Source: Desulfofustis limnaeus (GTDB lineage: Bacteria; Desulfobacterota; Desulfobulbia; Desulfobulbales; Desulfocapsaceae). From it: 64,000 bases of DNA. This document shows positions 114 through 23,793 of this stretch, piece by piece. The notes beneath the pieces are model-generated. The model searched no databases. It saw nothing but the letters and a program-made list of their open reading frames with translations, and was not told the DNA's origin. The position numbers were made by a program, and so were the translations under genes. Location of the stretch: positions 2,490,501-2,554,500 of the forward strand of contig NZ_AP025516.1 in assembly GCF_023169885.1 (NCBI RefSeq). Direction: 5' to 3'. Positions within the stretch are counted from its first letter, which is position 1; each line of letters opens with the position of its first letter.

Positions 114-2978
114 TTATCCCGCCGAGGCCGCAACCCGCTCCGGCACCGCCGCATAGGCCATGGCCAGCAGCTTGATCGGCGGCAGGGAGTGACGGCTGGT
201 GCCCTGGTAGATCTGCATCCCGCAGGCCCCGCACCCGGTCACCACCTGGTCGACACGGGAGGTGTTGATCTCGTCGAAGAGGCGCTGGCCGATCTTCATG
301 GACAGCTCGTAATTCTTGCTCTTCAAGCCATACGTACCGCCCATGCCGCAACATTTGTCGGAATAGGTCTCCACCTCCACACCGGGAATCAACTCCATGA
401 GCTGCACCGGCTCCTTGACCACCCCGAGGGTGCGCAGATGGCAGGGGGCATGGTAGCCGACCTTCATGGTGAGCCGACCGAACTCGGTATTCAGTTCCCC
501 CCGACGGTGGAGATCCATGAGGAATTTGTGGATGTCCACGCAAGTGGCTGCCACCCGCCGGGCCTCGTCGGTCTCGACAATGCGCGGATACTCGTCCTTG
601 ACCGCCAGCGCACAGCTCGGCTCGCTGAAGATGATCGGCAGACCGCGTTCGGCATAGGGCAGCAACGCTTTGATGTTGGCATGGATGTCGTCGAGGATGT
701 GATCCTGCCCGCCGGCACTGATACGGGCGATGCCGCAACACTTCAGCTCCGGCAGCAGCACCCGGAAACCGTTCCGCTCGAGCACCTCGATAACCGCCAT
801 CCCCTCGTTCTCCGGGTCGTTGTAATTGCCGAAACAACCGAGGAAGAACACCACCTCCTTGCTGCTCTGCAGCTGGGCGTGCTTTTTCATCATCTTGCGC
901 AGGGTCTCGTGCTGGAAGGGCGGCAGCTGCCGCTTGGCCTCCATGCCGAGCACCTTTTCCAGACCCCAGCGCACCGGCGCCAGCGAGGTGGCGAAGTTGG
1001 CCACCGGGGCCAGCAGGCTTCCCTGCTTACAGAGCAGGCTGGTGTCGGTCAAGACCCGGTTGGTCAACCCCTCGCCGCGGTGACGCACATACTCGGTGCG
1101 GGCGGCCATGGCCAGCCACGGCACGTCAACCCCGGATGGGCATTCGGTGAGGCACCGCTTGCAATTGATGCAGGAATCCATGACTTCCTTGAACTCCGGC
1201 TCATCGAGAATGGCCGGGTCGAGATTACCGGAAGTCAGTTCCCGCAGCAATGTGATCTTGCCCCGCCCCTTGGTCCATTCCTGCAGACTCGATGAGGCAA
1301 TGGGACAATAGGATCGGCATTTGGCGCAACCGGAACAATTCTCGATCTGCTCTTGATAGACCAGCTTGTCGAACGAGGTGCCGGTGCTGACCAGGGCGAA
1401 ATCAGGACCGAATTTCAGGTCGTGGCCAAGCGCGTTCTCCTCGCCGGAGATGATGACCCCCGGATTCATCAACCCGGCCGGATCGAAGGCGGCCTTGATC
1501 TCCTTCATCGCCTCGTAGAGGTGCGGATACTGGCGCTTGACATAGTAACTGCGCAGCCGGCCGTCGGCATGTTCACCGCTGACTGTCCCCTTGAGGCTGA
1601 GCACCAGGTCGCAGACCGCATCGGAGAGTGCCAGCATGGTCCGCACATCTTCTGGCTGGCGCGTATCCAGGATGGCCATGGTATGCAGATTGCCGTCACC
1701 GGCATGGCCGTAGATGGCGGCCTTCACCTGGAACTGATCGAACAGCCGGCGCAGACCGGCGATATATTCGGGCAACCGCGAGACGTGTACGGCGGCGTCC
1801 TCGATAAAGGCGATCGGCCGTTTCGGCCCTTTCATCCGGTTGAGGATCGGCCCGGAGATGCCGCGGACCTTGGTGAAGGTCTTCATATCCTCGGCGTTGC
1901 GGGCCTGCAGGATGCGTACCGCCAGTTGTTTGTCCTCCATCAGCCGTTTTTTGACGCCGGCGAATTTTTCCTGCAGCGCCTCATCGCTATCCTCTTGGAA
2001 CTCGATGAACAGCGACGCCTCGGTGTTCTCAGGGAAGTATTCGGCCAGCTCCGGCCGTTTTTCCCGGGCCAGATCGAGAATATGTTTCTCCATGATCTCG
2101 ATCATCGACGGTCCTTCCGCCAGGATCTGCTGGGTCGCCTCACCGACCTTGCCGAGATCGTCCAAATAGACGAAGCCGCTCAGGGCCTTTTGCGGGATCG
2201 GCGACAGTTTCAGGGTCGCCTCGGAGACAATCGCCAGTGTCCCCTCTGAGCCGACCAACAGCGGCGTCAGATCAAACGAGGTGCCATCGGAGAGATCCCA
2301 GACATGATACCCGCACGAATTCTTGCTGGTGAACGGTCGCTCCTCTTCCAGATACTGGCCGTACCGTTCGATGATCTCCGGGATCGTGCGGTTGATGGCG
2401 GCAGCGAGACCGCCGCCGGTAGCGCCGGTAGCGTGCTGTTGCGGCCCGGTGCGCATGATCTCGCCGTTGGCCAGGATCAACTCGAGCGACTTGACATGAG
2501 CCCGGGTGGTGCCGTACTTGACCCCGTGCGGACCGCTCGAGTTGTTGGCGATCATGCCGCCAAGCGTGGCCGAGTCGACCGTGGACGGGTCGATCGGGAA
2601 ATAGAGTTTGTGCTTTTTCAGCAGCCGGTTCAAATCGGCCAGGACGATGCCTGGCTCTACTCGGACCCACCGCTCTTCCACGTTGAGTTCGAGCAGCCGG
2701 TTGAGGTTCTTGCTGAAATCGATCAGGATGCCGCCGCCCAGCTCGTTGCCGGCCCGGCTCGTGCCGCCGCCCCGCGGCGTCAGCGGGATCTTGTGGCGGC
2801 CGGCGAATGTAACCGTCTCGATGACATCCTGCTTGCTTTTCGGTTGGACGATCGCCTGCGGCTTGATGCGGAACAATGAGGCGCCGCTACTGTAAAGCGA
2901 CCGGCTCAGTTCGTTGTCCAGCACCTCGCCTTCGATGCGTTGTTTCAATTCGGTATACACGTGTTGCCTTTCCTCCAT
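114..2978 (-). CDS. FAD-linked oxidase / Fe-S 2-hydroxyacid dehydrogenase (GlcD-GlcF fusion)
   Basis: The 954-residue protein fuses a GlcD-like flavoprotein to a GlcF-like iron-sulfur part. A FAD_binding_4 domain (about residues 40-180, with the PRGGGTSRAG motif) is followed by a FAD-oxidase C-terminal domain to about 510. Two ferredoxin motifs come next (CSGCAKCRSYCP near 550 and CINCKRCLTECP near 605), then two complete CCG domains (GCF...CCG near 710-760; APCH...CCGMGG near 840-900). Such proteins oxidise D-lactate, glycolate or a related D-2-hydroxyacid and pass electrons through Fe-S clusters to the quinone pool. The substrate cannot be read from sequence. It is the last gene of the TTT-transporter operon, next to a glyoxylate-type aminotransferase, so glycolate or glycerate is a reasonable guess. 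A GGAAGGG element precedes the ATG. Confidence 0.88.
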   Translation of the reverse strand: MEERQHVYTELKQRIEGEVLDNELSRSLYSSGASLFRIKPQAIVQPKSKQDVIETVTFAGRHKIPLTPRGGGTSRAGNELGGGILIDFSKNLNRLLELNVEERWVRVEPGIVLADLNRLLKKHKLYFPIDPSTVDSATLGGMIANNSSGPHGVKYGTTRAHVKSLELILANGEIMRTGPQQHATGATGGGLAAAINRTIPEIIERYGQYLEEERPFTSKNSCGYHVWDLSDGTSFDLTPLLVGSEGTLAIVSEATLKLSPIPQKALSGFVYLDDLGKVGEATQQILAEGPSMIEIMEKHILDLAREKRPELAEYFPENTEASLFIEFQEDSDEALQEKFAGVKKRLMEDKQLAVRILQARNAEDMKTFTKVRGISGPILNRMKGPKRPIAFIEDAAVHVSRLPEYIAGLRRLFDQFQVKAAIYGHAGDGNLHTMAILDTRQPEDVRTMLALSDAVCDLVLSLKGTVSGEHADGRLRSYYVKRQYPHLYEAMKEIKAAFDPAGLMNPGVIISGEENALGHDLKFGPDFALVSTGTSFDKLVYQEQIENCSGCAKCRSYCPIASSSLQEWTKGRGKITLLRELTSGNLDPAILDEPEFKEVMDSCINCKRCLTECPSGVDVPWLAMAARTEYVRHRGEGLTNRVLTDTSLLCKQGSLLAPVANFATSLAPVRWGLEKVLGMEAKRQLPPFQHETLRKMMKKHAQLQSSKEVVFFLGCFGNYNDPENEGMAVIEVLERNGFRVLLPELKCCGIARISAGGQDHILDDIHANIKALLPYAERGLPIIFSEPSCALAVKDEYPRIVETDEARRVAATCVDIHKFLMDLHRRGELNTEFGRLTMKVGYHAPCHLRTLGVVKEPVQLMELIPGVEVETYSDKCCGMGGTYGLKSKNYELSMKIGQRLFDEINTSRVDQVVTGCGACGMQIYQGTSRHSLPPIKLLAMAYAAVPERVAASAG

Positions 2979-4262: not shown

Positions 4263-4302
4263 GATGCTTCGCTCCTTCATTGGTAATAATAATAATTATA
4301 AA

Positions 4303-4340: not shown

Positions 4341-5519
4341 TCACCCATGGTTCGGTGCGGTGATCCTGCCGGTGACGGCCGACCAGGCAACGGTCAACGG
4401 TGAGGCCAGGAAGATCCGTGCCGCCGGCGAGCCGATACGGCCCGGATTGGCGCGAATCGTCGTGGTGATGGCGGTGTCGCCGCAGCCGAGCACGCCGAAG
4501 TGCCGGCCGGGACACGGACCGCAACCGGGCGGCAGGATAATGGCGCCGGCGTTGCGCAGGGCCACCGTCAGTTTCAGCGATTCCATGGCCTCCAGCACGT
4601 TTCGTGAGGCCGGGGTAATGAGGCAGGTAACCCGCTGGTGGACGCCGTTTCTGGCAAGAATGTCCGCCGCCGCCTTGAAATCTTCGAGGCGGCCTGAAGA
4701 ACAACTGCCGATCATCGCCACGTCGATCGTTTCCTCCGTCAGCCGCTCGGGTTCGGCAAACGACAAGGTGTCACCGGGCAGGGCAACCAGTGGGCCGATC
4801 GCGGCCGCGTCGATGTCGATGTTCGTGTGCGCCTGCTCACCCTGGGGCAAGACCAGCACCGTGGCCACGCCTCCTTCGGGGAGAAAATTGCATATCGCCA
4901 TCTTTTCGCTGATGGAGAGCCCGTCAATGGTCGAGCCGGTCAGCAACACCGCTCGCCCCCTGATCGCCGCCCCGTGATGGTGGATCAGATACATGGCCAG
5001 ATCACGAGCCATGACCCGCGGGGAGAGCGTTCCCTGCACGGTTATCACCACGCTCTCGGGAACGCACAGTTCGTAAGAGCCGGTACCGATGACCGGAACC
5101 AGCCCCGCCGCCGATACGGAAAAGGCGATGGCGCCGAAGGCCCCGGCGGTGGCCACATGCCCGTCGGCTCCGACGATGATCATGCCCGGCCACAGCGACT
5201 CCTCCTCGGCCACCACCTGATGCAACACCCCTTCGCCGTTCTTGTAGAGCAGCACCTGATGCTGTTCGGCAAACCCGGCCAACTCCCGGTGAAACTCACG
5301 GTCCGCCGCAGTCGGCGCGGGAAAGGCGTGATCCAGGGTAAAGAGCAGGCGGGTGCAACCGGCGGGCCGGGTTCCGCTGACCCGCAGCTCCTTGAGGACG
5401 GCCGGCCCGGTGCCGTCATGGCCGAGAGCCAGATCAACCTTGATGGTGATCCGTTGCCCCGGATGCACCGTTTCGAGCCGGGCAGATTTTGCCAGTTGTC
5501 GATGGAAAAAGTCGCTCAT
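4341..5519 (-). CDS. LeuC/homoaconitase-like hydratase large subunit, no small subunit nearby
   Basis: A 392-residue member of the aconitase superfamily, shorter than typical LeuC (about 420 or more). The iron-sulfur cluster ligands are visible as GSCSSGR (near residue 265) and CGPCPG (near 330), and the VGADGH motif replaces the usual GTDSH. LeuC-type proteins normally need a LeuD small subunit carrying the swivelling domain, and none is encoded in this operon. It may pair with a subunit encoded elsewhere or act alone. The chemistry would be hydration/dehydration of a malate-type acid. The start at 5519 has no strong ribosome site. Confidence 0.75.
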   Translation of the reverse strand: MSDFFHRQLAKSARLETVHPGQRITIKVDLALGHDGTGPAVLKELRVSGTRPAGCTRLLFTLDHAFPAPTAADREFHRELAGFAEQHQVLLYKNGEGVLHQVVAEEESLWPGMIIVGADGHVATAGAFGAIAFSVSAAGLVPVIGTGSYELCVPESVVITVQGTLSPRVMARDLAMYLIHHHGAAIRGRAVLLTGSTIDGLSISEKMAICNFLPEGGVATVLVLPQGEQAHTNIDIDAAAIGPLVALPGDTLSFAEPERLTEETIDVAMIGSCSSGRLEDFKAAADILARNGVHQRVTCLITPASRNVLEAMESLKLTVALRNAGAIILPPGCGPCPGRHFGVLGCGDTAITTTIRANPGRIGSPAARIFLASPLTVAWSAVTGRITAPNHG

Positions 5520-6637: not shown

Positions 6638-8152
6638 CTATTTGACCTCCGGCCGCTGCATTTCACCGGCCAGGACGTTGGGCTTATGGCGAAACCGGCT
6701 GTACAGCGTCCACACCAGGGTCAGCAGGGCGACCGCCAGGATGGTGCCGGCAATCGGCCGGGACAAGAAGGCCATCAAGTCATAATCTTCCATACGCATG
6801 CCGCGCCGCAGGGATTCCTCGGCCAGCCCACCGAGCACCAGGGCGATGATCAGCGGAGCCACGGAGTAGTCGTACTTCTTCATCACGTAGCCGAGCAGAC
6901 CGAAGGCGAACATGATCCACACATCGGACATGGAGTTGGCGATGCCGAAGGCGCCGACGGTGGCAAAGACGAAGATGCACGGCCCGAGGATCGAGTAACG
7001 GAGCTTGCGGAAGTTGGAGAACAGCTTGGCCACGATGATGCCGGAGAAGAACATGAAGACGTTGGCTACGTACATGGCCAGGAAGATCGAATACATCAGA
7101 TCCGGCTGGTTGAGGAAGAGCATCGGGCCGGGCTGCAGACCATGCACCATGAACCCGCCGATGATGACCGCGGTGGTGGCGCTACCGGGGATGCCGAGCG
7201 TCAGCAGCGGCACCATGGCGCCACCGGTGGCCGCATTGTTGGCGGTCTCCGGGGCGGCGATGCCGTCCGGGATACCGGTACCGAATTTTTCCGGGTGCTT
7301 GGACCAGCGCACCGCTTCCGAATAGCCGATAAAAGACGCCGTCGTAGCGCCGACGCCGGGAAGAATACCGATCAGCGTGCCGAGCACGGCGGAGCGCAGC
7401 ACGTTCCACTTGAGCTTGAGCATCTCGGCCAGGGACGGCATCTTGGTAGAGACCTTCACGTCCCCCTCGCCGCCGATCGAAGAGCCGCTCTCGGCGGTGA
7501 GCAGGATCTCACCGACGGCAAAGGCACCGATCAGGGCGACGATGAAGTTGACCCCGCCGATCAGCCCGCTCCAGCCGAAGGTAAACCGCTCCACACCGGA
7601 CATGGGATCGATGCCGATGGTGGCGATGAGCAGGCCGATAAAGCCGATGAGGAAGGCCTTGGCCATCTTGTTGCCGCCCAGCGTGGCGATCAGGGTCAGG
7701 GCGGCAAACGCCAGAGCGAAGTACTCCGGCTCGGAGAAGGTGAGCGCCACCTCGGCCAGCAGCGGCGAGATCAGGTTCATCACCGCGACGCTGAACAGCC
7801 CGCCGATGGTGCTGCACATGATGGCGATGCCGAGTGCCTTGCCGGCCTTGCCGGCCTTGGCCATCGGATAACCGTCGAAACCGGTGACCGAGGCCTCGGG
7901 TGAGCCGGGCACGTTGAACAGGATGGCCGAGATCGAACCGCCGAACGTCCCACCACAGTAGACCGCAGAAAGCAGCAGCAAACCCGAGGTGGCGTCCATC
8001 GCATAGGTGAAGGGGATGAGCAGAGCGGTGCCCATCGTCGAGTTGAGCCCGGGAATGGCCCCGAGCATGACCCCCATCATGACCCCGGCGAAGATGAAGA
8101 GCAGGGCCATCGGGTCGAACACATTTCCAAACGCTGTCATCCAGATTTCCAT
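6638..8152 (-). CDS. tctA: Tripartite tricarboxylate transporter large membrane subunit TctA
   Basis: A 504-residue polytopic membrane protein with the TctA family signature: an N-terminal GAIPGLNSTMG segment (near 33), a GSISAILFNVPGSPEA stretch (near 75) and an internal repeat with LPGVGATTASFIGYSEA and LLTLGIPGSATTA. About 11-12 hydrophobic segments are apparent. It is the permease of a TTT system that takes up carboxylates with an ion gradient, working with TctB and a periplasmic TctC. An AAGGAG site precedes the ATG by eight bases. The order tctC-tctB-tctA on the minus strand is the usual one. Confidence 0.95.
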   Translation of the reverse strand: MEIWMTAFGNVFDPMALLFIFAGVMMGVMLGAIPGLNSTMGTALLIPFTYAMDATSGLLLLSAVYCGGTFGGSISAILFNVPGSPEASVTGFDGYPMAKAGKAGKALGIAIMCSTIGGLFSVAVMNLISPLLAEVALTFSEPEYFALAFAALTLIATLGGNKMAKAFLIGFIGLLIATIGIDPMSGVERFTFGWSGLIGGVNFIVALIGAFAVGEILLTAESGSSIGGEGDVKVSTKMPSLAEMLKLKWNVLRSAVLGTLIGILPGVGATTASFIGYSEAVRWSKHPEKFGTGIPDGIAAPETANNAATGGAMVPLLTLGIPGSATTAVIIGGFMVHGLQPGPMLFLNQPDLMYSIFLAMYVANVFMFFSGIIVAKLFSNFRKLRYSILGPCIFVFATVGAFGIANSMSDVWIMFAFGLLGYVMKKYDYSVAPLIIALVLGGLAEESLRRGMRMEDYDLMAFLSRPIAGTILAVALLTLVWTLYSRFRHKPNVLAGEMQRPEVK

Positions 8153-8173
8153 GGTAGTCGCTCCTTAGACCGA

Positions 8174-8677
8174 TCAATACAGCAGGTGGCTGATGGACAG
8201 AAAGATCCCCACGCCGCGCGGCAAGGGAACGTACATGGCCTTGGTGAAAATGAGGACGATGCCGATGGTCAGCACGAACGGAATGGTGAAGATCCACACC
8301 TTGCTTCGCTCACCGAGCAGATACATGAAGGCGATCATCATGAACGGCGTCAGTACCAGGAATCCCACGAAGGGCAGCAACACCAGATAGCCGGTGATCA
8401 GGGACACGGCGGCGATGAACCGAACCTTCTCGGCGGTGAAGGTGATTTTCTGCACCGCTGGAATCGTTCCCTGCAAGACCCCTTTGATCGAGAAAAAGGC
8501 CACCATGACGCTGAAGACCATGATCGAGACCAGCACGAACTTGGGCCAGTAGGCGGGACCGAGTTGCCCGTAAACGTCACCGGAATCGAGCGCCTTGATC
8601 TCGACATAGAGATACAGCGCCGCACAGAACACGATAGCGCTGATGATCACATCTGCTTTCAACAATGATCTGAACAC
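8174..8677 (-). CDS. tctB: Tripartite tricarboxylate transporter small membrane subunit TctB
   Basis: A small membrane protein with four hydrophobic segments, matching the TctB family in size (167 residues) and layout (one helix, a polar loop with GQLGPAYWPKFV, then three helices). The likely start is the GTG at 8677, which is six bases after an AAGGAG sequence; an upstream ATG at 8695 would contain that ribosome site inside its own coding region. The gene lies between tctC and tctA with a 21-base gap to tctA. Confidence 0.88.
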   Translation of the reverse strand: MFRSLLKADVIISAIVFCAALYLYVEIKALDSGDVYGQLGPAYWPKFVLVSIMVFSVMVAFFSIKGVLQGTIPAVQKITFTAEKVRFIAAVSLITGYLVLLPFVGFLVLTPFMMIAFMYLLGERSKVWIFTIPFVLTIGIVLIFTKAMYVPLPRGVGIFLSISHLLY

Positions 8678-8779
8678 AGACCGCTCCTTTCTCATGAGAT
8701 GGACAGAAGCCGCCGCCGGCCACAAGACCGACCACGAACCGGCGGCGCATAGTGCGATAAACCGTTCCGAACCTGATCG

Positions 8780-8801
8780 GGGCGGAGCAGATGCTCCGCC
8801 C
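8780..8801. other. GC-rich hairpin between tctC and tctB
   Basis: A perfect 10-bp inverted repeat (GGGCGGAGCA/TGCTCCGCCC) lies just after tctC, with no T-run. A stem at this place commonly stabilises the upstream message or partly stops transcription, giving more binding protein than permease. The TRAP operon has a similar stem after dctP (40360-40397). Confidence 0.6.
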
Positions 8802-8814
8802 GTTGGTGTGGCAG

Positions 8815-9798
8815 TTACTTCACATAGCCGAGTTGGGTCAGGACGTCCTTGGTGGCCTGATATTCGTCATCCCAGTACTTACCGAATTCAACCGGGCCTT
8901 TCCAGCCGGGCCGTTGATCGAGCAGGGAGGTGGCCTGGTACTCGACGAACATCGGGTCCTGGGCGGCTTGCTCGAGCACACCGGCCAGATAATCGATGAT
9001 CGGCTGCGGGGTGCCCTTCTTGACCGCCAGACCACGCCAGCGGCCGGTGGTGATGTTGATACCCAGTTCCACCGAGCAGGGGACATCGGGGAATTTATCC
9101 AAACGCTTGTCGTTGAAGACGATGATCGGCTTCAGTTTGCCAGCCTCGATCAGCGACAGGATGACGCCCGGCTCCTCATGGAGCACGTCGAGGTGTCCGC
9201 CGAGGACGGCCGCATGGGTCTGCGGGGCCTTGTCGAACGGTACGTATTTGATGTCGATGCCGGCTTCCTTGGCAAAACGCATGATGATGATCTCATCCGG
9301 GCTGGTCGGGGTGGTGCCGGTGAACTGCAGTTTTCCCGGATTGGCCTTGGCATACTCGATCAGTTCCTGGACGGTCTGGAAATTCTTGTTCTCCGGGTTG
9401 ATGTAGAAAATGCTGATATCCTGCTGGACCTGGACCAGCGGTGCAAATTCCTCACTGAAATTCTCCCGGCCGAGAGCGGTGTTGATCAACTGCTCGGGGC
9501 TGAAGTTGTAGATGGTGTACCCGTCGGCAGGTTGTCCCAAGACGTATTTCGAGGCCTTGACGCCGGCCCCGCCGGTCATATTGGTTACGTTAATGGTGGT
9601 ACCGAGAAGCTTGGCAGCGGGCGTCATCAGGTTGCGCACGAAGATATCGCTGCCACCACCGGCGCCGTACTGGACGACAACTTCAATGGGCCGCTCCGGA
9701 TATCCGTCGGGGCCGTCTCCGGCCTGCACGGTAAAGGCAAAAAGGAACGAGAGAACCGCCAAAACGGAAAACCGCACAGATTTTTTCATACTCAGCAT
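8815..9798 (-). CDS. tctC: Tripartite tricarboxylate transporter substrate-binding protein TctC
   Basis: A 327-residue periplasmic binding protein. Residues 1-26 form a Sec signal peptide (KK, hydrophobic core, AQA-type end at VQA). Family features follow: YPERPIEVVVQYGAGGGSD, the GGAGVKASKYVLGQPADGYT stretch and the C-terminal WDDEYQATKDVLTQLGYVK. It captures a carboxylate for TctAB. GAGGTGA lies just before the first ATG. The gene is the first of the operon and sits 200 bases downstream of a candidate sigma54 promoter. Confidence 0.93.
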   Translation of the reverse strand: MLSMKKSVRFSVLAVLSFLFAFTVQAGDGPDGYPERPIEVVVQYGAGGGSDIFVRNLMTPAAKLLGTTINVTNMTGGAGVKASKYVLGQPADGYTIYNFSPEQLINTALGRENFSEEFAPLVQVQQDISIFYINPENKNFQTVQELIEYAKANPGKLQFTGTTPTSPDEIIIMRFAKEAGIDIKYVPFDKAPQTHAAVLGGHLDVLHEEPGVILSLIEAGKLKPIIVFNDKRLDKFPDVPCSVELGINITTGRWRGLAVKKGTPQPIIDYLAGVLEQAAQDPMFVEYQATSLLDQRPGWKGPVEFGKYWDDEYQATKDVLTQLGYVK

Positions 9799-10217: not shown

Positions 10218-12218
10218 TCAGGGGCCCGGCCTTCGCTGACCTCGTATCGGAGCCGGTTCTTCGAGCTGCTGCAGTTTCCGCCAGAGCGTGGTCCTGCTGA
10301 TGCCGAGCCGTCGAGCCGCCTCGCTCTTGCTGCCCCGACACTCGCGCAGCACCTGGTGGATCAGCTGCCCCTCAAACGCATTCATCCCCTGATCCAAGGA
10401 GCCGTCTCCTGCCGGCAGTCGAGTATGGTGACCATCCGGGGGCGTGTTTACCGAATGGACGGCATCGGGCGAAGCATCGCCGGCAGCGCTTGCCCCCCCG
10501 CTAAAATCCTGGATCTGCAGCGCCTTACGGACCTCCCTGGTATGAATGAGGCCGCCCGGCGTCAGCACCGACAAGCGCTCCATGGCGTTGCGCAACTGCC
10601 GGATATTACCCGGCCAATCATACCCGATCAGCACCTCCTGGGCCCCCGGCGAGAAAAAACCCGGCGGCTTATGCTGCACGGCTAAAAATTCCTGAAGAAA
10701 ATGATCGGCGATGGCAAGGATATCGTCACGCCGCTGGCTCAACGTCGGGATCGGCAAAGACAGGACGTTGAGCCGGTAGTACAGGTCTTCCCGGAAACGG
10801 CCGGCGGCCACCAGTTCCCGGAGATTTCGGTGGGTAGCGGCGATCAGTCGGACATTGATGGGCAGGATGCGGCTGTCGCCCAGCCGCATCACTTCGCGCT
10901 GCTCGATGGCCCGAAGAAATCGGGACTGCAACATGGGCGGCATCTCGCCGACCTCGTCGAGCAACAGGGTGCCGCCATGGGCCATTTCAAACACCCCCGC
11001 TTTGCCACCCTTGCGCGCCCCGGTAAAGGCGCCTTCCACATAGCCGAACAATTCGCTCTCCAGGATGGATTCGGGCAGAGCGGCGCAGTTGATCGCCACG
11101 AACGGTTCATTGTGCCGTCGGCTGGCGTTGTGGATGGCCTGGGCGAAGATCTCCTTGCCGGTGCCGGTACGGCCGTAGATGAGCACCGTCGAATCGATGG
11201 CGGCGTATTCCATGGCCAGTCCCACCGCCTCCACCAGGGCCGGGCTGGTACCGATGATATCGGCAAAACGATGGCGGGCGACCAGTCCTTTGTCGGAGAG
11301 CTTGCGCCGCACCTTGCTTTCGATTTTCTGCAGCGAATCGAGGCGCTGGAAGGTGGTCACCACACCTTCTATCTTGCGGTCGACGATGATCGGAATGCGG
11401 TTGCCGACCACCTTGACCGAGCCGATCTCAAATACCGCCCCCAATTCCGGCCGCCCCGACTTGAGCAGCAGATGGCAGCCGGCATCGGGAATCACCTCGG
11501 TCACATCGCGGTTGATCGCCTGCTCCGCCGTCCATCCGGACAGCTCCTGGGCTACCCGGTTGAACACGGTGATCCGCCCCTCCCGGTCCAGGGCGATAAT
11601 TCCGTCATAGGTGAAGTTGAAGATCGCCTTGAGCTGCTCGGCCTTGCGTTTTTCCTGTTTGCGGACCTGGTTGACCCGCCGCGCCTCGAGCAGGGCGGTG
11701 CGCACCGCCTCGAAACCGGAGGTGATGACCACCGCATCCAACCCCTGGGCGCGGGCCTCCCGGGCCATGGCGATCTTGCCGATGACCACGTCGGCGCCGC
11801 GCTGCCGGAGCAGACCGATGCCGTGAGCGATGTCGTCCAGATCGTTTTGGCAGGTATATTTGATCAGCTTGTCCTCGATGATTTTTTCCAGGCTGGACAA
11901 ACCGACGATCACGTCCTCCACATCGACGATGCCGACCCGGCTGCCGATCTTTTTCGCCTCCTTGTAGGCACGCAGGATATCGTAGCCGCCGATGCGGATG
12001 TCCACCACCGGCAGTTCGATCCCCGATTCCTTGATCTTCGAGGCGGTCAGCCCGCGGCTGACGATCACCTGATAGCCCTGCCGTTCCGCTGTCTGCACCT
12101 GTTCGACGGCATCATCCATACGGGTGACGCGGATATCCACGTCCTCGTCGGCGCCGATAACCTTGAGACCGATCTCGGCCAGTTCCGGATAGGGGCAAAT
12201 AAAGAGAATATCAGCCAT
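10218..12218 (-). CDS. Sigma54-dependent transcriptional activator, PrpR family
   Basis: About 666 residues. A PrpR_N sensor domain (residues 1-175) is followed by a PAS domain (about 195-290), a sigma54 AAA+ domain (about 325-560) and a Fis-type helix-turn-helix at the C-terminus (SKSEAARRLGISRTTLWRKLQQL). The AAA+ domain has Walker A as GRTGTGKE (arginine where glutamate is usual), the sigma54-contact loop GAFTGA and Walker B GGTLLLDEVGEM. PrpR_N domains sense small organic acids, so it probably reports the imported substrate. The ATG at 12218 is chosen because GAGG precedes it by five bases; a start 14 codons earlier lacks such a site. It lies directly upstream of the tctC operon and its candidate binding sites. 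Confidence 0.92.
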   Translation of the reverse strand: MADILFICPYPELAEIGLKVIGADEDVDIRVTRMDDAVEQVQTAERQGYQVIVSRGLTASKIKESGIELPVVDIRIGGYDILRAYKEAKKIGSRVGIVDVEDVIVGLSSLEKIIEDKLIKYTCQNDLDDIAHGIGLLRQRGADVVIGKIAMAREARAQGLDAVVITSGFEAVRTALLEARRVNQVRKQEKRKAEQLKAIFNFTYDGIIALDREGRITVFNRVAQELSGWTAEQAINRDVTEVIPDAGCHLLLKSGRPELGAVFEIGSVKVVGNRIPIIVDRKIEGVVTTFQRLDSLQKIESKVRRKLSDKGLVARHRFADIIGTSPALVEAVGLAMEYAAIDSTVLIYGRTGTGKEIFAQAIHNASRRHNEPFVAINCAALPESILESELFGYVEGAFTGARKGGKAGVFEMAHGGTLLLDEVGEMPPMLQSRFLRAIEQREVMRLGDSRILPINVRLIAATHRNLRELVAAGRFREDLYYRLNVLSLPIPTLSQRRDDILAIADHFLQEFLAVQHKPPGFFSPGAQEVLIGYDWPGNIRQLRNAMERLSVLTPGGLIHTREVRKALQIQDFSGGASAAGDASPDAVHSVNTPPDGHHTRLPAGDGSLDQGMNAFEGQLIHQVLRECRGSKSEAARRLGISRTTLWRKLQQLEEPAPIRGQRRPGP

Positions 12219-12298
12219 GACAACCTCAGCGGCGACGGTTCCTGCCGCCGCCGCTGTCACATCTGGCAGACCGCCGGTGGCGGCCGACCACGTACCGG

Positions 12299-15227: not shown

Positions 15228-15911
15228 TTACGGCGCCGCCTCCTGGTCGTTTGTGGGGGTGTCTTCCCGAGCCTCCCGGACATGATCCCGCATGACTCGT
15301 TCACAGAGCCCCGGATCACCCAGTTCCAGGGCCAGCAGAATCTTCCGATGGCCGGTGATGCTCCGCTGCACGCCCCGCCGGTGCAGCAGGGTGTGCTGGC
15401 GATACCGCAATACATACTGGCGCATATCCTCGATCAGGCCGTGCAGCCGCGGTCGGGAACGGGCCAGCAGTCCGTAGAGCAGATCGTGGAAACGGGTATT
15501 GAGGGCAAAAACGATCTCCAACGACTCCTGCCGGCACGCCAATTCGGCCTGCTCCACCAGTTCTCGCAAGGCCTCCAATTCGGCTGCCCGGATAGTGGCG
15601 CACAGGCAGGCGAGCGCATGTCCTTCGAGAACCGAGCGGATCTCGAACAATTCGTTCATATCCTCGACCGACTCATCGGGGACCCGGTAGCCGCGGGCCC
15701 CGGCGGCGCTGACCAGGCCTTCCAGTTCCAGCTTGTGCAACGCTTCTCGAACTGGCGTGCGACTCACGCCGAGACGCCGGGCCAGAGACTCCTCGGTAAG
15801 CCGTTGACCGGGCGGAAATTGACCGGTCAGCAGATGACGCCGCAAGGTGGTATAGGTCTGTTCCCGTACCGAATGCGAACGGTGAGGTGGAGACGGTTGG
15901 GTATCTTTCAT
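15228..15911 (-). CDS. GntR-family transcriptional regulator with FCD domain
   Basis: About 227 residues from the ATG at 15911. The winged helix (about residues 12-75) contains LTEESLARRLGVSRTPVREALHKLELEGLV, and the FCD ligand domain follows with the metal-binding pattern of FadR-C proteins. An upstream in-frame start at 15971 is possible, but it would run through the operator-like repeats, so 15911 is preferred even though its ribosome site is weak. The gene is divergent from the Fe-S/Cys-rich pair at 16170-17674, with operator-like repeats between them, so it probably controls itself and that pair. Confidence 0.87.
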   Translation of the reverse strand: MKDTQPSPPHRSHSVREQTYTTLRRHLLTGQFPPGQRLTEESLARRLGVSRTPVREALHKLELEGLVSAAGARGYRVPDESVEDMNELFEIRSVLEGHALACLCATIRAAELEALRELVEQAELACRQESLEIVFALNTRFHDLLYGLLARSRPRLHGLIEDMRQYVLRYRQHTLLHRRGVQRSITGHRKILLALELGDPGLCERVMRDHVREAREDTPTNDQEAAP

Positions 15912-16108
15912 TTTGTATCCCAAAAATGCACGTATTCTCTCTTTTGTACCCCAAGAACCGGCGCCCGTCAAGTCAGGCTTGACTACTGATTTCTCTCATT
16001 AACCGCTCTATAACATTGTGTTAGTGGACAGCAGATTACGTTTTCAACCTACCCGAACTCAGTTTTTTTCAACCAGACCATTGCCAATGGATGCCATTTT
16101 GGATACAA
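15911..16108. promoter_or_regulatory. Operator-like repeats in a divergent intergenic region
   Basis: Two direct copies of TTTTGTAYCCCAA lie at 15911-15925 (TTTTGTATCCCAAAA, perfect 5-bp arms) and 15942-15956. A third, inverted copy (TTTTGGATACAA) is at 16097-16108. The first overlaps the GntR start codon and the third lies about 60 bases before the divergent Fe-S gene. This is the arrangement expected for autoregulation by the adjacent GntR protein. The rest of the gap is AT-rich and holds no other clear signal. Confidence 0.55.
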
Positions 16109-16169
16109 TCACCGCAGCAACCCTTTGTCGGGCACCTACGCCTCACCGCAAACCAGCCGAGGAACCAGT

Positions 16170-16997
16170 ATGAAAATTTCCAAAGAACGGTGTGTCGGGT
16201 GCGCCAATTGCGTACCCATCTGCTCCGTCGGCGCTATTTATATAGGCGACGACGGTCTGGCGGAGATCAACACGGAGACCTGTGTCGAATGCCACAACTG
16301 CTATCGAAGCCTCAGCTTCGAGCATCTCCAGCCGGGCCTCACCCGGACCATCCGCCGGGTCTTAAAAAAAATGAGCCTGCGTTTTCAGCCGGACCCCGAT
16401 GTCTGCCCCACCGAGGCCTTCATTCCGGACGAGTTGAGTTGGCCGCGCATCGTTCGCCGCGCCTTCAGCGACCCGATGGTCACCCATGAATCCACCGGCG
16501 TCCATGGCCGCGGCACCGAAGAGGTGAAGACCAACGACGTCAGTCACCGGATCAAGGCAGGCGATGTGGGGGTCGTCATCGAGTTCGGCCGCCCCGGCAT
16601 CGGTGTCTACTTCCGGGAGGTGCAGAAGGCGACCATGGCCCTGGCCGCCGCCGGCGTCGTCTTCGAGGAGGGCAATCCGGTGACCCAGATGATGGCCGAT
16701 CGGGCCATCGGTACCATTCGCGAGGACGTCCTTGACGAGAAGGTCCTGTCCTGTATCGTCGAAGTGACCGTCTCGCTGGCCGACACGGCCAAGGCCCTGC
16801 AGACCGTCAAGCAGATCTGCCGGGCCGCAGAGACGGTGATCAGCATCGGCGTCTCCACGGTCTGCAACGAGGACGGCAGCGAGCCGCTCCGGGAGATCCT
16901 CGAGCGCGAGGGCTACCAGACCGGTTGGGCGAAAGTGAATCTGGGCCTGGGGCGGGCCAGCAACGCCTCGATCAGTACGGGAGGTACCCGATCATGA
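16170..16997 (+). CDS. 4Fe-4S protein of unknown function
   Basis: A 275-residue protein with an N-terminal ferredoxin-like part. The first cluster motif is canonical (CVGCANCVPIC, near residue 8). The second begins CVECHNC (near 42), but its fourth cysteine is displaced to DVCPTEAF about 40 residues later. The remaining ~180 residues match no family I recognise; they contain GDVGVVIEFGRPGIGVYFREVQ and VSTVCNEDGSEPLREILE. The start at 16170 is set by GAGG seven bases upstream. Its stop overlaps the next start (ATGA), so the two proteins are probably made together and form a complex. An electron-transfer or assembly role is possible, but unproven. Confidence 0.8.
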   Translation: MKISKERCVGCANCVPICSVGAIYIGDDGLAEINTETCVECHNCYRSLSFEHLQPGLTRTIRRVLKKMSLRFQPDPDVCPTEAFIPDELSWPRIVRRAFSDPMVTHESTGVHGRGTEEVKTNDVSHRIKAGDVGVVIEFGRPGIGVYFREVQKATMALAAAGVVFEEGNPVTQMMADRAIGTIREDVLDEKVLSCIVEVTVSLADTAKALQTVKQICRAAETVISIGVSTVCNEDGSEPLREILEREGYQTGWAKVNLGLGRASNASISTGGTRS

Positions 16998-17674
16998 CCA
17001 ACACCCTGCACCGGTTCGGCACACCGGACACCCTGAACAACGACTTCATCGTCTTCGCCATGGCCGCCAAGGGCTTCAACGAGCAAGGCGCCTTGGACAA
17101 GGCCAAGGCCTTCCTGCGGGCCGCCATCAAATACCAGCCGATCAACATGGGCAACGCCCTGGTCAATTCCCTGTACCGGCCGGAAAAAGATCTGACCTTC
17201 ATCAAGCTCTATTTCGTCGGCCGCCAGCAGAAGACGACCTACGAGAAGCTGATCGACGAAATCCCCGGGCCGGGCTCGGCGGCGGTGGTCTTCGACGACC
17301 CCAACAAGGTGAAGAATTTCGTTCGCGACGTCAAACAGCTCGACCTCGGGCTGTCCATCAATATCAGCGCCCTGGTGGACGATGTCCGCAACATCTGTGG
17401 GGAGGTGGAGATCACCCCGCACGCGGTGGAGTACACGCTCGGTTTTCACGGCGATACGAGCCGGCTGCCGGAGCGTGACACGCTGTCGCTGACCACCATG
17501 TGCGGGCACGGCATGGTATCGGCCAATTTCGCCAAGAAGATGATCGACCGGGTCAAGGAAGGCCGGATGGATCCGCAGGAAGCAGCCTGCTGCATGGCCA
17601 AGTTCTGCGTCTGCGGCGTCTTCAACACCACCCGGGCCATGCGCGTCCTGAACCGGGTCAAGAAAGGCCAGTGA
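16994..17674 (+). CDS. Conserved Cys-rich protein of unknown function, partner of the 4Fe-4S protein
   Basis: A 226-residue soluble protein that I do not recognise. Cysteines are concentrated in its C-terminal half: MCGHGMVSANF near residue 170 and the dense CCMAKFCVCGVFN near 203-215, which could bind a metal or cluster. The N-terminal half is alpha-helical in character and has no cysteines. It starts inside the stop codon of the preceding gene (4-base ATGA overlap), which shows translational coupling. A strong hairpin follows the stop. The pair faces a GntR regulator on one side and a tartrate-dehydrogenase-like gene on the other. Confidence 0.78.
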   Translation: MTNTLHRFGTPDTLNNDFIVFAMAAKGFNEQGALDKAKAFLRAAIKYQPINMGNALVNSLYRPEKDLTFIKLYFVGRQQKTTYEKLIDEIPGPGSAAVVFDDPNKVKNFVRDVKQLDLGLSINISALVDDVRNICGEVEITPHAVEYTLGFHGDTSRLPERDTLSLTTMCGHGMVSANFAKKMIDRVKEGRMDPQEAACCMAKFCVCGVFNTTRAMRVLNRVKKGQ

Positions 17675-17733: not shown

Positions 17734-18792
17734 CTACTCCCCGAGTGCCCCGATAACCCGGTCGGTAAACGACCGGGTCGTTTCCCTGCCCCCCAGATCG
17801 CGGGTTAGGTAGCCGCCGCCGGTCACCCGTTCCACCGCCGCCATCAGGGCGGCCCCGGCTTTCTGTTCACCGAGAAAATCAAGCATCATCTGCACCGACC
17901 AGAAGGTGGCAATGGGATTGGCCACCCCCTGGCCGGCGATGTCGGGCGCCGAGCCATGGACCGGTTCGAACATCGACGGGAACTGCCGCTCCACGTTGAG
18001 GTTGGTCGACGGCGCCACGCCGATGCCGCCGGCAATCGCCGGCCCCAGATCGGAGAGGATGTCGCCGAAGAGGTTGGAGCCGACCACCACGTCGAACCAA
18101 TCGGGGTGCTGCACGAAGTGGGCGGTCAGGATGTCGATATGGAACTGGTCGCAACGCAGTTCCGGATAATCGGCGGTAATCGCCCGGAAACGCTCGTCCC
18201 AATAGGGCATGGTAAACCGGATACCATTGGACTTGGTGGCCGAGGTGAGATGGCGGGCCGGCCGCGACGAGGCCATCTCACAGGCAAAGCGGATCACCCG
18301 GTCGACGCCTTTACGGGTGAAGACCGATTCCTGTACCACCAGCTCCCGCTCGGTACCGGCAAAAAGCCGCCCACCGATATCGGAGTACTCTCCTTCCGTG
18401 TTTTCCCGCACCACCAGAAAATTGATGTCGGCAGCTGTCCGACCAACCAGTGGTGAGGTGATTCCGGACAGCAGCCGCACCGGCCGCAGATTGACATATT
18501 GTTCGAACTGCCGCCTGATGGGCAGCAGCAGCCCCCACAACGAAACATGGTCGGCAACGCCGGGAGCGCCCACCGCTCCCAGCAGGATGGCCTGGAACAG
18601 CCGCAGCCGCTCGAGCCCGTCCTCGGGCATCATCTCCCCATGGCGTAGAAAGTAGTCGCAGGAGTAGGGAAATTCGGTAAAACTCAGATCGAAGCAAAAT
18701 TCCCGGGACAAGGCCTCCAGCATCCTTACTCCTTCGGGGATCACTTCCCGTCCGATCCCGTCGCCGGGGATCAAGGCAATCTCATAGACCAT
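17734..18792 (-). CDS. Isocitrate/isopropylmalate dehydrogenase family protein, tartrate dehydrogenase-like
   Basis: A 352-residue member of the beta-decarboxylating dehydrogenase family, of TtuC/tartrate-dehydrogenase length. It shows LIPGDGIGREVIPEG at the N-terminus, the substrate arginines in NLRPVRLL, NFLVVRENTEGEYSDIGG (near 128), the catalytic lysine in TSATKSNG and the metal aspartates in VVGSNLFGDILSDLGP. The family oxidises and often decarboxylates 2-hydroxy acids (tartrate, malate, isopropylmalate) with NAD. GGAGG precedes the ATG. It converges on the Fe-S/Cys-rich pair. Confidence 0.88.
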   Translation of the reverse strand: MVYEIALIPGDGIGREVIPEGVRMLEALSREFCFDLSFTEFPYSCDYFLRHGEMMPEDGLERLRLFQAILLGAVGAPGVADHVSLWGLLLPIRRQFEQYVNLRPVRLLSGITSPLVGRTAADINFLVVRENTEGEYSDIGGRLFAGTERELVVQESVFTRKGVDRVIRFACEMASSRPARHLTSATKSNGIRFTMPYWDERFRAITADYPELRCDQFHIDILTAHFVQHPDWFDVVVGSNLFGDILSDLGPAIAGGIGVAPSTNLNVERQFPSMFEPVHGSAPDIAGQGVANPIATFWSVQMMLDFLGEQKAGAALMAAVERVTGGGYLTRDLGGRETTRSFTDRVIGALGE

Positions 18793-21737: not shown

Positions 21738-22568
21738 TCAAAAACTGACCACCGCCCGCACCATGCCGCCGGCCTTGAGCGTACTGATATGCTGGTAGGT
21801 GCCGCCCAGCGCCTCGGCCAGACGGCGCATCTCCGGCGCCGGGCTACTCAGCGGCCGGGTATCGATAACCAGCGAGGCGATTTCGTCCTGGCCGATCCGC
21901 CCGGCGATGGCCAGCAGTTCCGCCTCGATATCCGCCGCCCGGCACTGCGGGTCGTACGGGACATTGGCCTCACCGTCGGAGAGAATCACCAGCAGCGGCC
22001 TGATATGCGGATCCTTGAGCCGCTCCGTCCGGACCAACCGCCAGGCCTTCATCAAGCCGTCGGCGAACGGTGTGGCACCGCCGGTGGGCAGGGTTCTGAG
22101 CTGTCGCTGGGCCAGCGACAGGCTGGTGGTCGGCTGCAATACCACGGCGGCGGTCTCCTCGCGAAACACCACCAGACCAACCCGGTGCCGTCGTTGGTAG
22201 GCCTTGCCGAGAATGGCCAGCACCGCCCCCTTGGCCGCCTTGATACGGGCATAGGTCCCATCGTCGCCCATGGAATCGGAAGAGTCGACGACGAACACCA
22301 CCAGCGTCTGGCGCGGCCGTCGATAGGCCTTCTTGCGCAGGTCCGCCGCGGCGACCTGCAGGGATCCCGTTTTGGCGTTGGGGCCCTGGCGCAGCAGGGC
22401 AGCGCGGATGGTAGCGTCTGCCGCCAGATCGAATTCGCGCTCCTGATCTCGCACCGGTAGAGCGCGGATATAACGCCCGGAAGAACCCATGACCGACGCC
22501 GCCTTGGTGCGGCCCCGCCGGCCGCCGGTGAGGGAGAGGTCGCCGAGATCGAGATCCTCCACGCACAC
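21738..22568 (-). CDS. VWA-domain protein, magnesium-chelatase subunit D-like
   Basis: A 276-residue protein with a C-terminal von Willebrand A domain (about residues 85-270). The MIDAS metal site is clear: DSSDSMGDDG near 93, a TGGATPFADGL threonine loop near 165 and ILSDGEANV near 198. The short N-terminus (RKKAYRRPRQ before the domain) resembles the C-terminal part of BchD/ChlD. Its GTG start shares one base with the stop of the AAA+ gene, so the two are translationally coupled and should act as an I/D-type complex. No large chelatase subunit (ChlH/CobN) is in the window. Confidence 0.85.
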   Translation of the reverse strand: MCVEDLDLGDLSLTGGRRGRTKAASVMGSSGRYIRALPVRDQEREFDLAADATIRAALLRQGPNAKTGSLQVAAADLRKKAYRRPRQTLVVFVVDSSDSMGDDGTYARIKAAKGAVLAILGKAYQRRHRVGLVVFREETAAVVLQPTTSLSLAQRQLRTLPTGGATPFADGLMKAWRLVRTERLKDPHIRPLLVILSDGEANVPYDPQCRAADIEAELLAIAGRIGQDEIASLVIDTRPLSSPAPEMRRLAEALGGTYQHISTLKAGGMVRAVVSF

Positions 22569-23761
22569 TACTTCATCGGCTTCGAAGACAACTTTTTTTT
22601 TTCGGCGACAAAGGTGAAGAGCATGCCCACGTTGGACGCGGCCATCGACCCGGGGACCTGCATCGGCAATTCTTCCCAGTCGTCCACCTCACTGGTGGAA
22701 GGCGGCTGCGTCTCGAGGGTGTCGTCCCGCTCCCGGGCCACCCTCCGCAACGCCTCTTCCAGTTTTTCCTCGAGCAGTTCGGCGGTGGCCAGCGCCACCG
22801 TGGTGATCCGATGGGGCAGCACAAACCGGGCCGCTTCGCGGATGTGCTCCAGCCGTACCTCCTCTTCCTCGAGAAAGGCGGCCAGCGCCCGCGCCGTCTT
22901 GACGATACCGATATCGGCGCGGTGCCCCTGGGCGCCCACCTCGATAGCCAGGGCCACGGCGATGCCAAGCATCTCGTCGGTGACCCGGACCCGGGCCAGA
23001 CGCTCGCGGGCCCGCACCACCAGTTCGGAAAGCAGCACCTCATCGGCGGCATAATCGGCAACGAAGGCGGCCGGATCGCCGTCGAAAACGATGCGGCGAC
23101 TGATCACCTGGCGTCGCTGTTCAACCCCCGACTCGCCGGCCACCGTCAGGCTGAGGCCGAAGCGGTCGAGAAACTGCGGCCGCAGTTCGCCCTCCTCCGG
23201 GTTCATGGTACCGACGAGCAGGAAGCGGGCCGGATGGCTGTGGGAAATGCCTTCCCGCTCCACCAGGTTAACCCCGGAGGCGGCCGCATCGAGCAGGATA
23301 TCGACCAGATGGTCGTCAAGCAGGTTGACCTCGTCCACATAGAGGATGCCGCGGTTGGCCAGCGCCAGCAGGCCCGGCTCGAAACGGCGCTCCCCGGTCT
23401 TGAGGATCTGCTCCACATGCAGGGTGCCGATCACCCGGTCTTCGGTGGCCGACAGCGGCAACTCCACCAGCGGCATGGGCCGGGTCACGACCGGTAGCTG
23501 CTCACCGGCACGGATCCGCCGCAAACAATCGGCGCACATCTGCCGTTCGTCGTGGGGCGCGCAATGATAGGGACATCCCCCCACCACCTCGATGGGCGGT
23601 AGAATCCGGGCCAGAGCCCGAACCGCCGTCGATTTGCCGGTGCCTTTCTGGCCGCTGATCAGGACCCCGCCGATGGCCGGATCAACGGCATTGAGCAGCA
23701 GCGCCGTCTTCATCTTTTCCTGGCCCACCAGGGCGGAGAATGGAAAAACTGGTCGTTTCAT
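22568..23761 (-). CDS. AAA+ ATPase, magnesium-chelatase subunit I-like
   Basis: A 397-residue BchI-type AAA+ protein. Walker A is GQKGTGKS (near 38), Walker B ILYVDEVNLLDDH (near 145), and sensor motifs lie in FLLVGTMNPEEGELRPQFLDRFG. A four-cysteine segment (CPYHC...CADC, near 62-80) is present, as in several BchI relatives. BchI/BchD motors drive insertion of Mg, Co or Ni into tetrapyrroles, or act as MoxR-like remodelers. The ATG at 23761 has no obvious ribosome site; a TTG further upstream is possible. The promoter region contains a TGGT-N3-ACCA operator. Confidence 0.85.
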   Translation of the reverse strand: MKRPVFPFSALVGQEKMKTALLLNAVDPAIGGVLISGQKGTGKSTAVRALARILPPIEVVGGCPYHCAPHDERQMCADCLRRIRAGEQLPVVTRPMPLVELPLSATEDRVIGTLHVEQILKTGERRFEPGLLALANRGILYVDEVNLLDDHLVDILLDAAASGVNLVEREGISHSHPARFLLVGTMNPEEGELRPQFLDRFGLSLTVAGESGVEQRRQVISRRIVFDGDPAAFVADYAADEVLLSELVVRARERLARVRVTDEMLGIAVALAIEVGAQGHRADIGIVKTARALAAFLEEEEVRLEHIREAARFVLPHRITTVALATAELLEEKLEEALRRVARERDDTLETQPPSTSEVDDWEELPMQVPGSMAASNVGMLFTFVAEKKKLSSKPMK

Positions 23762-23793
23762 CGGAATATGATATGATATCAACAAAGTGTAAG

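What the first reader, a model, noticed from the sequence alone, without database searches (positions are those of the whole stretch)
16170..17674. Translationally coupled Fe-S/Cys-rich protein pair of unknown function
Seen: two coupled genes (ATGA overlap), the first with one canonical 4Fe-4S motif and a second with a displaced fourth cysteine, the second with a dense CCMAKFCVCG motif and MCGHGMVS. Both have long parts unlike any family I know. They have their own divergent GntR regulator with three operator-like repeats and face a tartrate-dehydrogenase-like gene. This looks like a dedicated redox or metal-handling system.
Basis: partly seen in the sequence, partly recalled or inferred. Interest (0 to 1): 0.7.

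Follow-up and report, generated by a model that had tools for sequence, protein, structure and literature searches.

The report
Unnamed two-protein iron-sulfur catabolic module
Two bacterial genes that always occur together encode an uncharacterised iron-sulfur protein pair, present in up to about nine copies per genome beside genes that import and break down organic acids, so they probably form an undescribed redox enzyme.

Summary
Gene A (16170-16997) encodes a 2[4Fe-4S] ferredoxin domain plus a domain of no known family; gene B (16994-17674) overlaps it by ATGA and matches nothing in Pfam, NCBIfam or, by sequence, the PDB. The "displaced" cysteine is C79, moved by a 29-residue insert that marks one clade. 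A and B are an obligate pair: 95 of 95 A genes are followed by B, and the same 25 of 247 Desulfobacterota genomes hold both. The pair also occurs in Nitrospirota and Methylomirabilota, with up to about nine copies per genome, beside organic-acid transporters, GntR/PrpR regulators and 2-oxoacid or 2-hydroxyacid enzymes. In 21 of 95 pairs the same strand also carries a ferredoxin, an FAD/NAD oxidoreductase and a CO-dehydrogenase-like protein that has lost catalytic-cluster ligands, which looks like an electron relay. Two of the three GntR sites are conserved in orthologues. Best reading: a ferredoxin-linked, two-subunit Fe-S oxidoreductase for carboxylic acids, A passing electrons and B (invariant C170/H172/C205/C207) holding the active site. 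Substrate, direction and cofactor are unknown. A possible relation to 6-hydroxynicotinate reductase rests on memory and could not be tested.

The parts
16170..16997 (+). Gene A: 2[4Fe-4S] ferredoxin domain (res 1-88) + alpha/beta-plait domain (about 129-232) of no named family; electron-transfer subunit (inferred)
16191..16223 (+). First 4Fe-4S motif C8-C11-C14-C18
   Evidence: 99-100% conserved in 95
16281..16406 (+). Second 4Fe-4S motif C38-C41-C44 ... C79, fourth Cys displaced by a 29-residue insert (about res 47-75)
   Evidence: insert gained once on the tree
16506..16538 (+). Signature GRGTEEVKTND (res 113-123) of the A family
16994..17674 (+). Gene B: plait domain (about 16-130) + helical C-terminal part with invariant C170/H172/C205/C207; putative catalytic subunit (inferred)
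17495..17512 (+). TMCGHG motif (T168-G173) with C170 and H172
17606..17626 (+). CVCGVFN motif (C205-N211)
16994..16997 (+). ATGA stop/start overlap of A and B
15228..15911 (-). Divergent GntR-FCD regulator
   Evidence: adjacent in most Desulfofustis orthologues
15911..15923 (+). Operator-like site 1 (TTTTGTATCCCAA) at the gntR start, conserved
15942..15954 (+). Operator-like site 2 (TTTTGTACCCCAA), not conserved
16101..16108 (-). Operator-like site 3 (TTGTATCC on the - strand), conserved, overlaps the -10 element of gene A
16081..16109 (+). Sigma-70-like promoter TTGCCA-17-TACAAT before gene A
17734..18792 (-). Neighbour (context only): tartrate dehydrogenase
114..2978 (-). Neighbour (context only): GlcD-type FAD oxidase + 4Fe-4S + CCG, 954 aa
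3084..4280 (-). Neighbour (context only): BhcA-like aminotransferase
6638..9798 (-). Neighbour (context only): TctA-TctB-TctC transporter
10218..12260 (-). Neighbour (context only): PrpR-like sigma-54 activator

Best explanation
A and B form one two-subunit iron-sulfur oxidoreductase that acts on a carboxylic acid (a hydroxy-, oxo- or enoic acid) imported by the neighbouring transporter. Gene-level pairing shows that they work together; that they form a physical complex is inferred. Subunit A carries two [4Fe-4S] clusters in a clostridial ferredoxin fold and relays single electrons. Subunit B holds the substrate site, in which invariant C170, H172, C205 and C207 (with H143 and R7) probably bind a metal or a [4Fe-4S] cluster with an open iron; this site is inferred from conservation only. 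In paralogues without the insert, electrons are exchanged with NAD(H) through a ferredoxin, an FAD/NAD oxidoreductase and a CO-dehydrogenase-like relay protein. In the window's insert-bearing clade that relay is absent, and electrons probably go to or come from free ferredoxin or partner 2-oxoacid/2-hydroxyacid oxidoreductases. In this genome a GntR repressor whose site overlaps the promoter of A switches the pair on when the substrate is present (inferred).
For: Obligate pair: 95/95 A followed by B, 95/98 B preceded by A, the exceptions being truncated contigs or a broken A; A and B profiles find the same 25/247 genomes and essentially the same Rokubacterial loci. Eight ferredoxin cysteines conserved in 99-100%, with a ferredoxin fold matching 1fca at Z 8.6, rmsd 1.2 over 54 residues. 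Redox relay: in 21 of 95 pairs Fd, FNOR and CooS-like genes lie on the same strand within 6 kb, and in 19 the FNOR lies within 200 bp; the CooS-like protein keeps the four B-cluster Cys and has lost C-cluster ligands. Indolepyruvate:Fd oxidoreductase alpha and beta genes flank A-B in L165, L166 and L170, and also in L172, where A is broken. Acid context: TctA within 8.5 kb of 16 of 40 loci against about 2 expected (hand count), TRAP, GntR, FAD-linked 2-hydroxyacid dehydrogenases, AOR. Substrate-like diversification: about nine copies in one genome with different neighbours. Regulation.
Against: No catalytic activity, cofactor or substrate is known. Neither new domain has a detectable homologue of known function, and no Foldseek hit reached E 0.001. 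In the insert clade, which includes the window, the NAD relay is missing, so redox partnership there rests on A's clusters and looser neighbours. The same facts would fit a Fe-S lyase or an accessory protein.
Confidence: 0.52

Rival explanations
1. A-B is a Fe-S dependent lyase or dehydratase rather than a net redox enzyme. The three invariant cysteines of B hold a [4Fe-4S] cluster whose open iron binds a hydroxy acid as Lewis acid; the clusters of A keep it reduced or repair it.
For: Three invariant Cys in B (C170, C205, C207) fit the usual ligand number of dehydratase-type clusters (established knowledge of aconitase/fumarase-type enzymes); hydroxy-acid and sugar-acid context such as IlvD, aconitase-family, DHDPS-like and HIBDH-like genes.
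Against: Such dehydratases do not normally carry a 2[4Fe-4S] ferredoxin subunit, and an NAD-linked relay beside 21 pairs would be unnecessary.
Confidence: 0.2
2. A-B is an accessory electron-transfer, activation or redox-sensing protein pair for partner enzymes such as IorAB, GlcD-type oxidases, AOR or 2-oxoacid oxidoreductases, with no catalysis of its own.
For: A-B sits between the two subunits of an indolepyruvate:Fd oxidoreductase in Rokubacteria; its partner enzymes vary widely; PII/ACT-like plait folds in both proteins can be regulatory.
Against: No single partner family is shared by all loci; in several loci the pair stands only with a transporter and a regulator (e.g. L024, L025); about nine divergent copies per genome fit substrate specificity better than a general helper.
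Confidence: 0.18
3. A-B is a split relative of 6-hydroxynicotinate reductase (Hnr): a ferredoxin-dependent reductase of an activated C=C bond in an N-heterocycle or enoic acid.
For: From memory only: proteins resembling A are annotated as 6-hydroxynicotinate reductase, a ferredoxin-linked Fe-S enzyme. A Bradyrhizobiaceae homologue at 42% identity to the E. barkeri enzyme lies in a nicotinate gene cluster (PMC3511419), so Hnr-like proteins do occur outside Eubacterium.
Against: No Hnr sequence could be obtained here and no Pseudomonadota or Bacillota genomes could be reached; no family model for it was among the best 25 NCBIfam hits of A. No nicotinate genes were recognised around A-B.
Confidence: 0.15

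Closest known systems
Clostridial-type 2[4Fe-4S] ferredoxins (Pfam Fer4 clan)
   Same: The first 88 residues of A: eight cysteines and the fold (1fca Z 8.6, rmsd 1.2)
   Different: A has a 29-residue insert before the eighth Cys in this clade and an unrelated conserved C-terminal domain with GRGTEExKTND; it always pairs with B
6-Hydroxynicotinate reductase (Hnr, EC 1.3.7.1)
   Same: Ferredoxin-linked Fe-S enzyme of an organic-acid catabolic cluster (memory; PMC3511419 for the cluster)
   Different: Sequence relation not tested; here two genes, and no nicotinate genes recognised nearby
Ni-CODH/CooF/FNOR gene clusters (PMC6344411)
   Same: The relay beside many non-insert A-B pairs has the same three components: CooS-like, ferredoxin, FAD/NAD oxidoreductase
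   Different: The CooS-like protein is shorter and has lost C-cluster ligands, keeping only the B-cluster cysteines; linked to A-B and acid transporters
Indolepyruvate:ferredoxin oxidoreductase (IorAB)
   Same: Shares an operon with A-B in some Rokubacteria; also ferredoxin-linked
   Different: A-B has no ThDP-enzyme domain match and is not similar to IorA or IorB beyond the ferredoxin motif

Membership tests
Ferredoxin, 2[4Fe-4S] (Pfam Fer4) | Two CxxCxxCxnCP-type motifs and the ferredoxin fold | tested here: met
   A res 1-88: Fer4 30.7 bits vs cut-off 21.1; fold match to 1fca; eight Cys conserved in 95 sequences
6-Hydroxynicotinate reductase (Hnr) | Sequence homology to E. barkeri Hnr over its full length | not testable with these tools
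   No Hnr sequence or host genome reachable
6-Hydroxynicotinate reductase (Hnr) | Gene neighbourhood of nicotinate catabolism (nicotinate dehydrogenase, enamidase) | tested here: inconclusive
   Not recognised by eye or by clustering in the loci examined, but no specific search for nicotinate genes was made
Functional Ni-CODH (for the relay protein, not for A-B) | C-cluster ligands present | tested here: not met
   Most ligand positions replaced in L120 vs 6elq; only four B-cluster Cys invariant in 15 aligned
Fe-S lyase/dehydratase families (aconitase, IlvD, LeuC and similar) | Match to a curated family model | tested here: not met
   No Pfam or NCBIfam family for B among 64 members at E up to 1 beyond scattered weak hits
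Fe-S lyase/dehydratase (general) | Cluster bound by three Cys in B | not testable with these tools
   Three invariant Cys only; model coordinates and metal content were not available

The most novel reading that the evidence does not exclude
A-B is the founding member of a new family of two-subunit iron-sulfur oxidoreductases with a novel catalytic site (Cys3-His), which have diversified into many organic-acid specificities in anaerobic bacteria and are wired to NAD(H) by a CO-dehydrogenase-derived electron relay that no longer handles CO.
Probability: 0.33. Interest if true: 0.82.

Novelty: new variant of a known kind. Interest (0 to 1): 0.62.

Why it matters
If correct, about a tenth of the Desulfobacterota and a fifth of the Methylomirabilota genomes sampled carry an unrecognised Fe-S enzyme family, sometimes in nine copies, so parts of organic-acid breakdown in sediments and groundwater are currently missed by annotation. 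The cultured Desulfofustis glycolicus carries the same gene cluster (L010), so the question can be tested directly. The linked CO-dehydrogenase-like protein without catalytic-site ligands would be a case of an enzyme reused as an electron wire, and would caution against reading such genes as CO oxidation.

Tried and rejected
Family searches of A and B in Pfam and NCBIfam and by sequence in PDB gave nothing beyond Fer4 for A. Plasmid records gave no relative of A or B; a paralogue of A hit only through its ferredoxin part. Viral contigs gave none. Foldseek gave no hit at E 0.001 for either model; structural hits are generic plait folds (PII, CutA, ACT, McrD) plus ferredoxins, so no fold-based function is claimed; the C-terminal part of B was barely tested by those searches. 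A common origin of the A and B plait domains was tested by profile comparison and is not supported (hhalign probability 2.7%). A full beta-hydroxyaspartate cycle as the window's pathway was considered because of the BhcA-like aminotransferase and rejected, since BhcC is not found in G000, G001 or G076. An A+B gene fusion was looked for: in L172 both lie in one open frame, but A's second half is in another frame, so it reads as a frameshift, not a fusion.

Full report
What is there. The window lies in a 4.23 Mb single-contig genome of the Desulfofustis group; Desulfofustis glycolicus DSM 9705 carries the same pair at 86-89% identity. Gene A (16170-16997) and gene B (16994-17674) overlap by ATGA. 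A begins with a 2[4Fe-4S] ferredoxin domain and continues with about 190 residues that match no Pfam family. B matches no Pfam or NCBIfam family and no PDB sequence convincingly.

The displaced cysteine. Alignment with paralogues shows a normal second cluster motif in which a 29-residue insert pushes the fourth ligand to C79; the cysteine itself is invariant. On a tree of 95 A+B pairs built without the insert columns, the 38 insert-bearing pairs form one clade with SH-aLRT 100 and a single change.

An obligate pair. In the 87 loci scanned, each of 95 A genes is followed by B on the same strand within about 200 bases; three further B genes lack a detected full A because of contig ends or a broken A. 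Searched separately over the same 247 Desulfobacterota genomes, the B profile and the profile of A without its ferredoxin domain find exactly the same 25 genomes. The two searches also agree in Methylomirabilota (22 and 21 of 95 genomes). B is in 4 of 148 Nitrospirota genomes. Copies per genome reach about nine (G082). B has R7, H143, G153, T168, C170, G171, H172, C205, C207, G208 and N211 at 97-100%.

Neighbours. Across the loci the pair lies beside tripartite tricarboxylate transporters, TRAP or ABC transporters, GntR or PrpR regulators, and enzymes of hydroxy- and oxo-acid metabolism. TctA genes are numerous in these genomes (182 in about 68 Mb), so I checked the background by hand: 16 of 40 A-B loci have a TctA within 8.5 kb where about 2 would be expected. 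In 21 pairs a ferredoxin, a CO-dehydrogenase-like protein and an FAD/NAD oxidoreductase lie on the same strand within 6 kb, and in 19 the oxidoreductase is within 200 bp of the pair. That CODH-like protein keeps the four B-cluster cysteines, but most C-cluster ligand positions are replaced, so I read it as an electron relay. The relay is near 26 of 57 pairs without the insert and 2 of 38 with it. Because the insert arose once, this is one evolutionary contrast, not 38. In three Rokubacteria the two subunits of an indolepyruvate:ferredoxin oxidoreductase flank A-B directly; a fourth locus (L172) has the same set with a broken A.

The window's own setting. Upstream on the minus strand lie a GlcD-type FAD oxidase with Fe-S and CCG domains, a BhcA-like aminotransferase (442 bits, cut-off 650), an aconitase/LeuC-type large subunit, a Zn-alcohol dehydrogenase, TctABC, a PrpR-like activator, IlvD, an aldo-keto reductase and the GntR gene. 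BhcC was not found in the genome, so a complete beta-hydroxyaspartate cycle is unlikely.

Regulation. A promoter-like TTGCCA-17-TACAAT precedes A, and one TTGTATCC site overlaps its -10 element. This site and the one at the gntR start are conserved in the orthologues that keep gntR adjacent; the third, middle site is not. Repression by GntR and induction by the substrate are inferred.

Structure. Models are confident (B pLDDT 91; A pLDDT 87). A is a ferredoxin (1fca Z 8.6, rmsd 1.2, 54 residues) plus a plait domain; B is a plait domain plus a helical Cys-bearing part. Plait matches of Z 6-8.6 are generic and say nothing about function.

How it works. Shown: obligate pairing, conserved cluster ligands, conserved Cys/His set in B, and association with acid transport and with a redox relay. 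Inferred: a physical complex, electron transfer through A, an active site in B, a carboxylic-acid substrate, and GntR-controlled induction. Unknown: substrate, direction, and the cofactor of B. Rivals are a Fe-S lyase, an accessory or sensor pair, and a split 6-hydroxynicotinate reductase relative. The last is a lead from memory: a homologue is described in a nicotinate cluster (PMC3511419), but no sequence could be compared here.

Novelty. The ferredoxin part is ordinary. The A C-terminal domain and the whole of B belong to no family in the libraries searched, and the combination is an uncharacterised module. I rate it a new variant of a known kind (ferredoxin-linked Fe-S oxidoreductases), because the reaction is not known and the Hnr relation is untested.

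Noticed in passing
L019, L020, L022, L027, L089, L092, L093, L096, L098, L110, L112, L115, L117, L120, L123 (e.g. L120:5218-6936): CO-dehydrogenase-like proteins that keep only the four B-cluster cysteines and have lost C-cluster ligands, in operons with a ferredoxin, an FAD/NAD oxidoreductase and A-B.
   Followed up: partly
G112 and G204: TctA transporter genes expanded to 29 copies in single Desulfobacterota genomes, against one in the window's genome.
   Followed up: no
window 4341-5519 (-): Aconitase/LeuC/HacA-type large subunit of only 392 aa; no small-subunit gene was noticed beside it.
   Followed up: no
window 3084-4280 (-): BhcA-like aminotransferase (442 bits, below the 650 cut-off) in a genome without BhcC; relatives lie beside A-B in L100, L120, L123, L161 and L178.
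   Followed up: partly
L178:2-1030 (G448:C22): BhcC-like 3-hydroxyaspartate aldolase followed by GlcD- and GlcF-like genes, about 6 kb from a BhcA-like gene and A-B, in a Nitrospirota genome.
   Followed up: partly
L172 (G376:C254): Gene A is broken by a frame change while B is intact, next to IorA and IorB genes; sequencing error or pseudogene not resolved.
   Followed up: no
window 21738-23785 (-): Two adjacent genes that look like a ChlI/MoxR-type AAA ATPase and a VWA-domain protein, conserved near A-B in several Desulfofustis loci.
   Followed up: no
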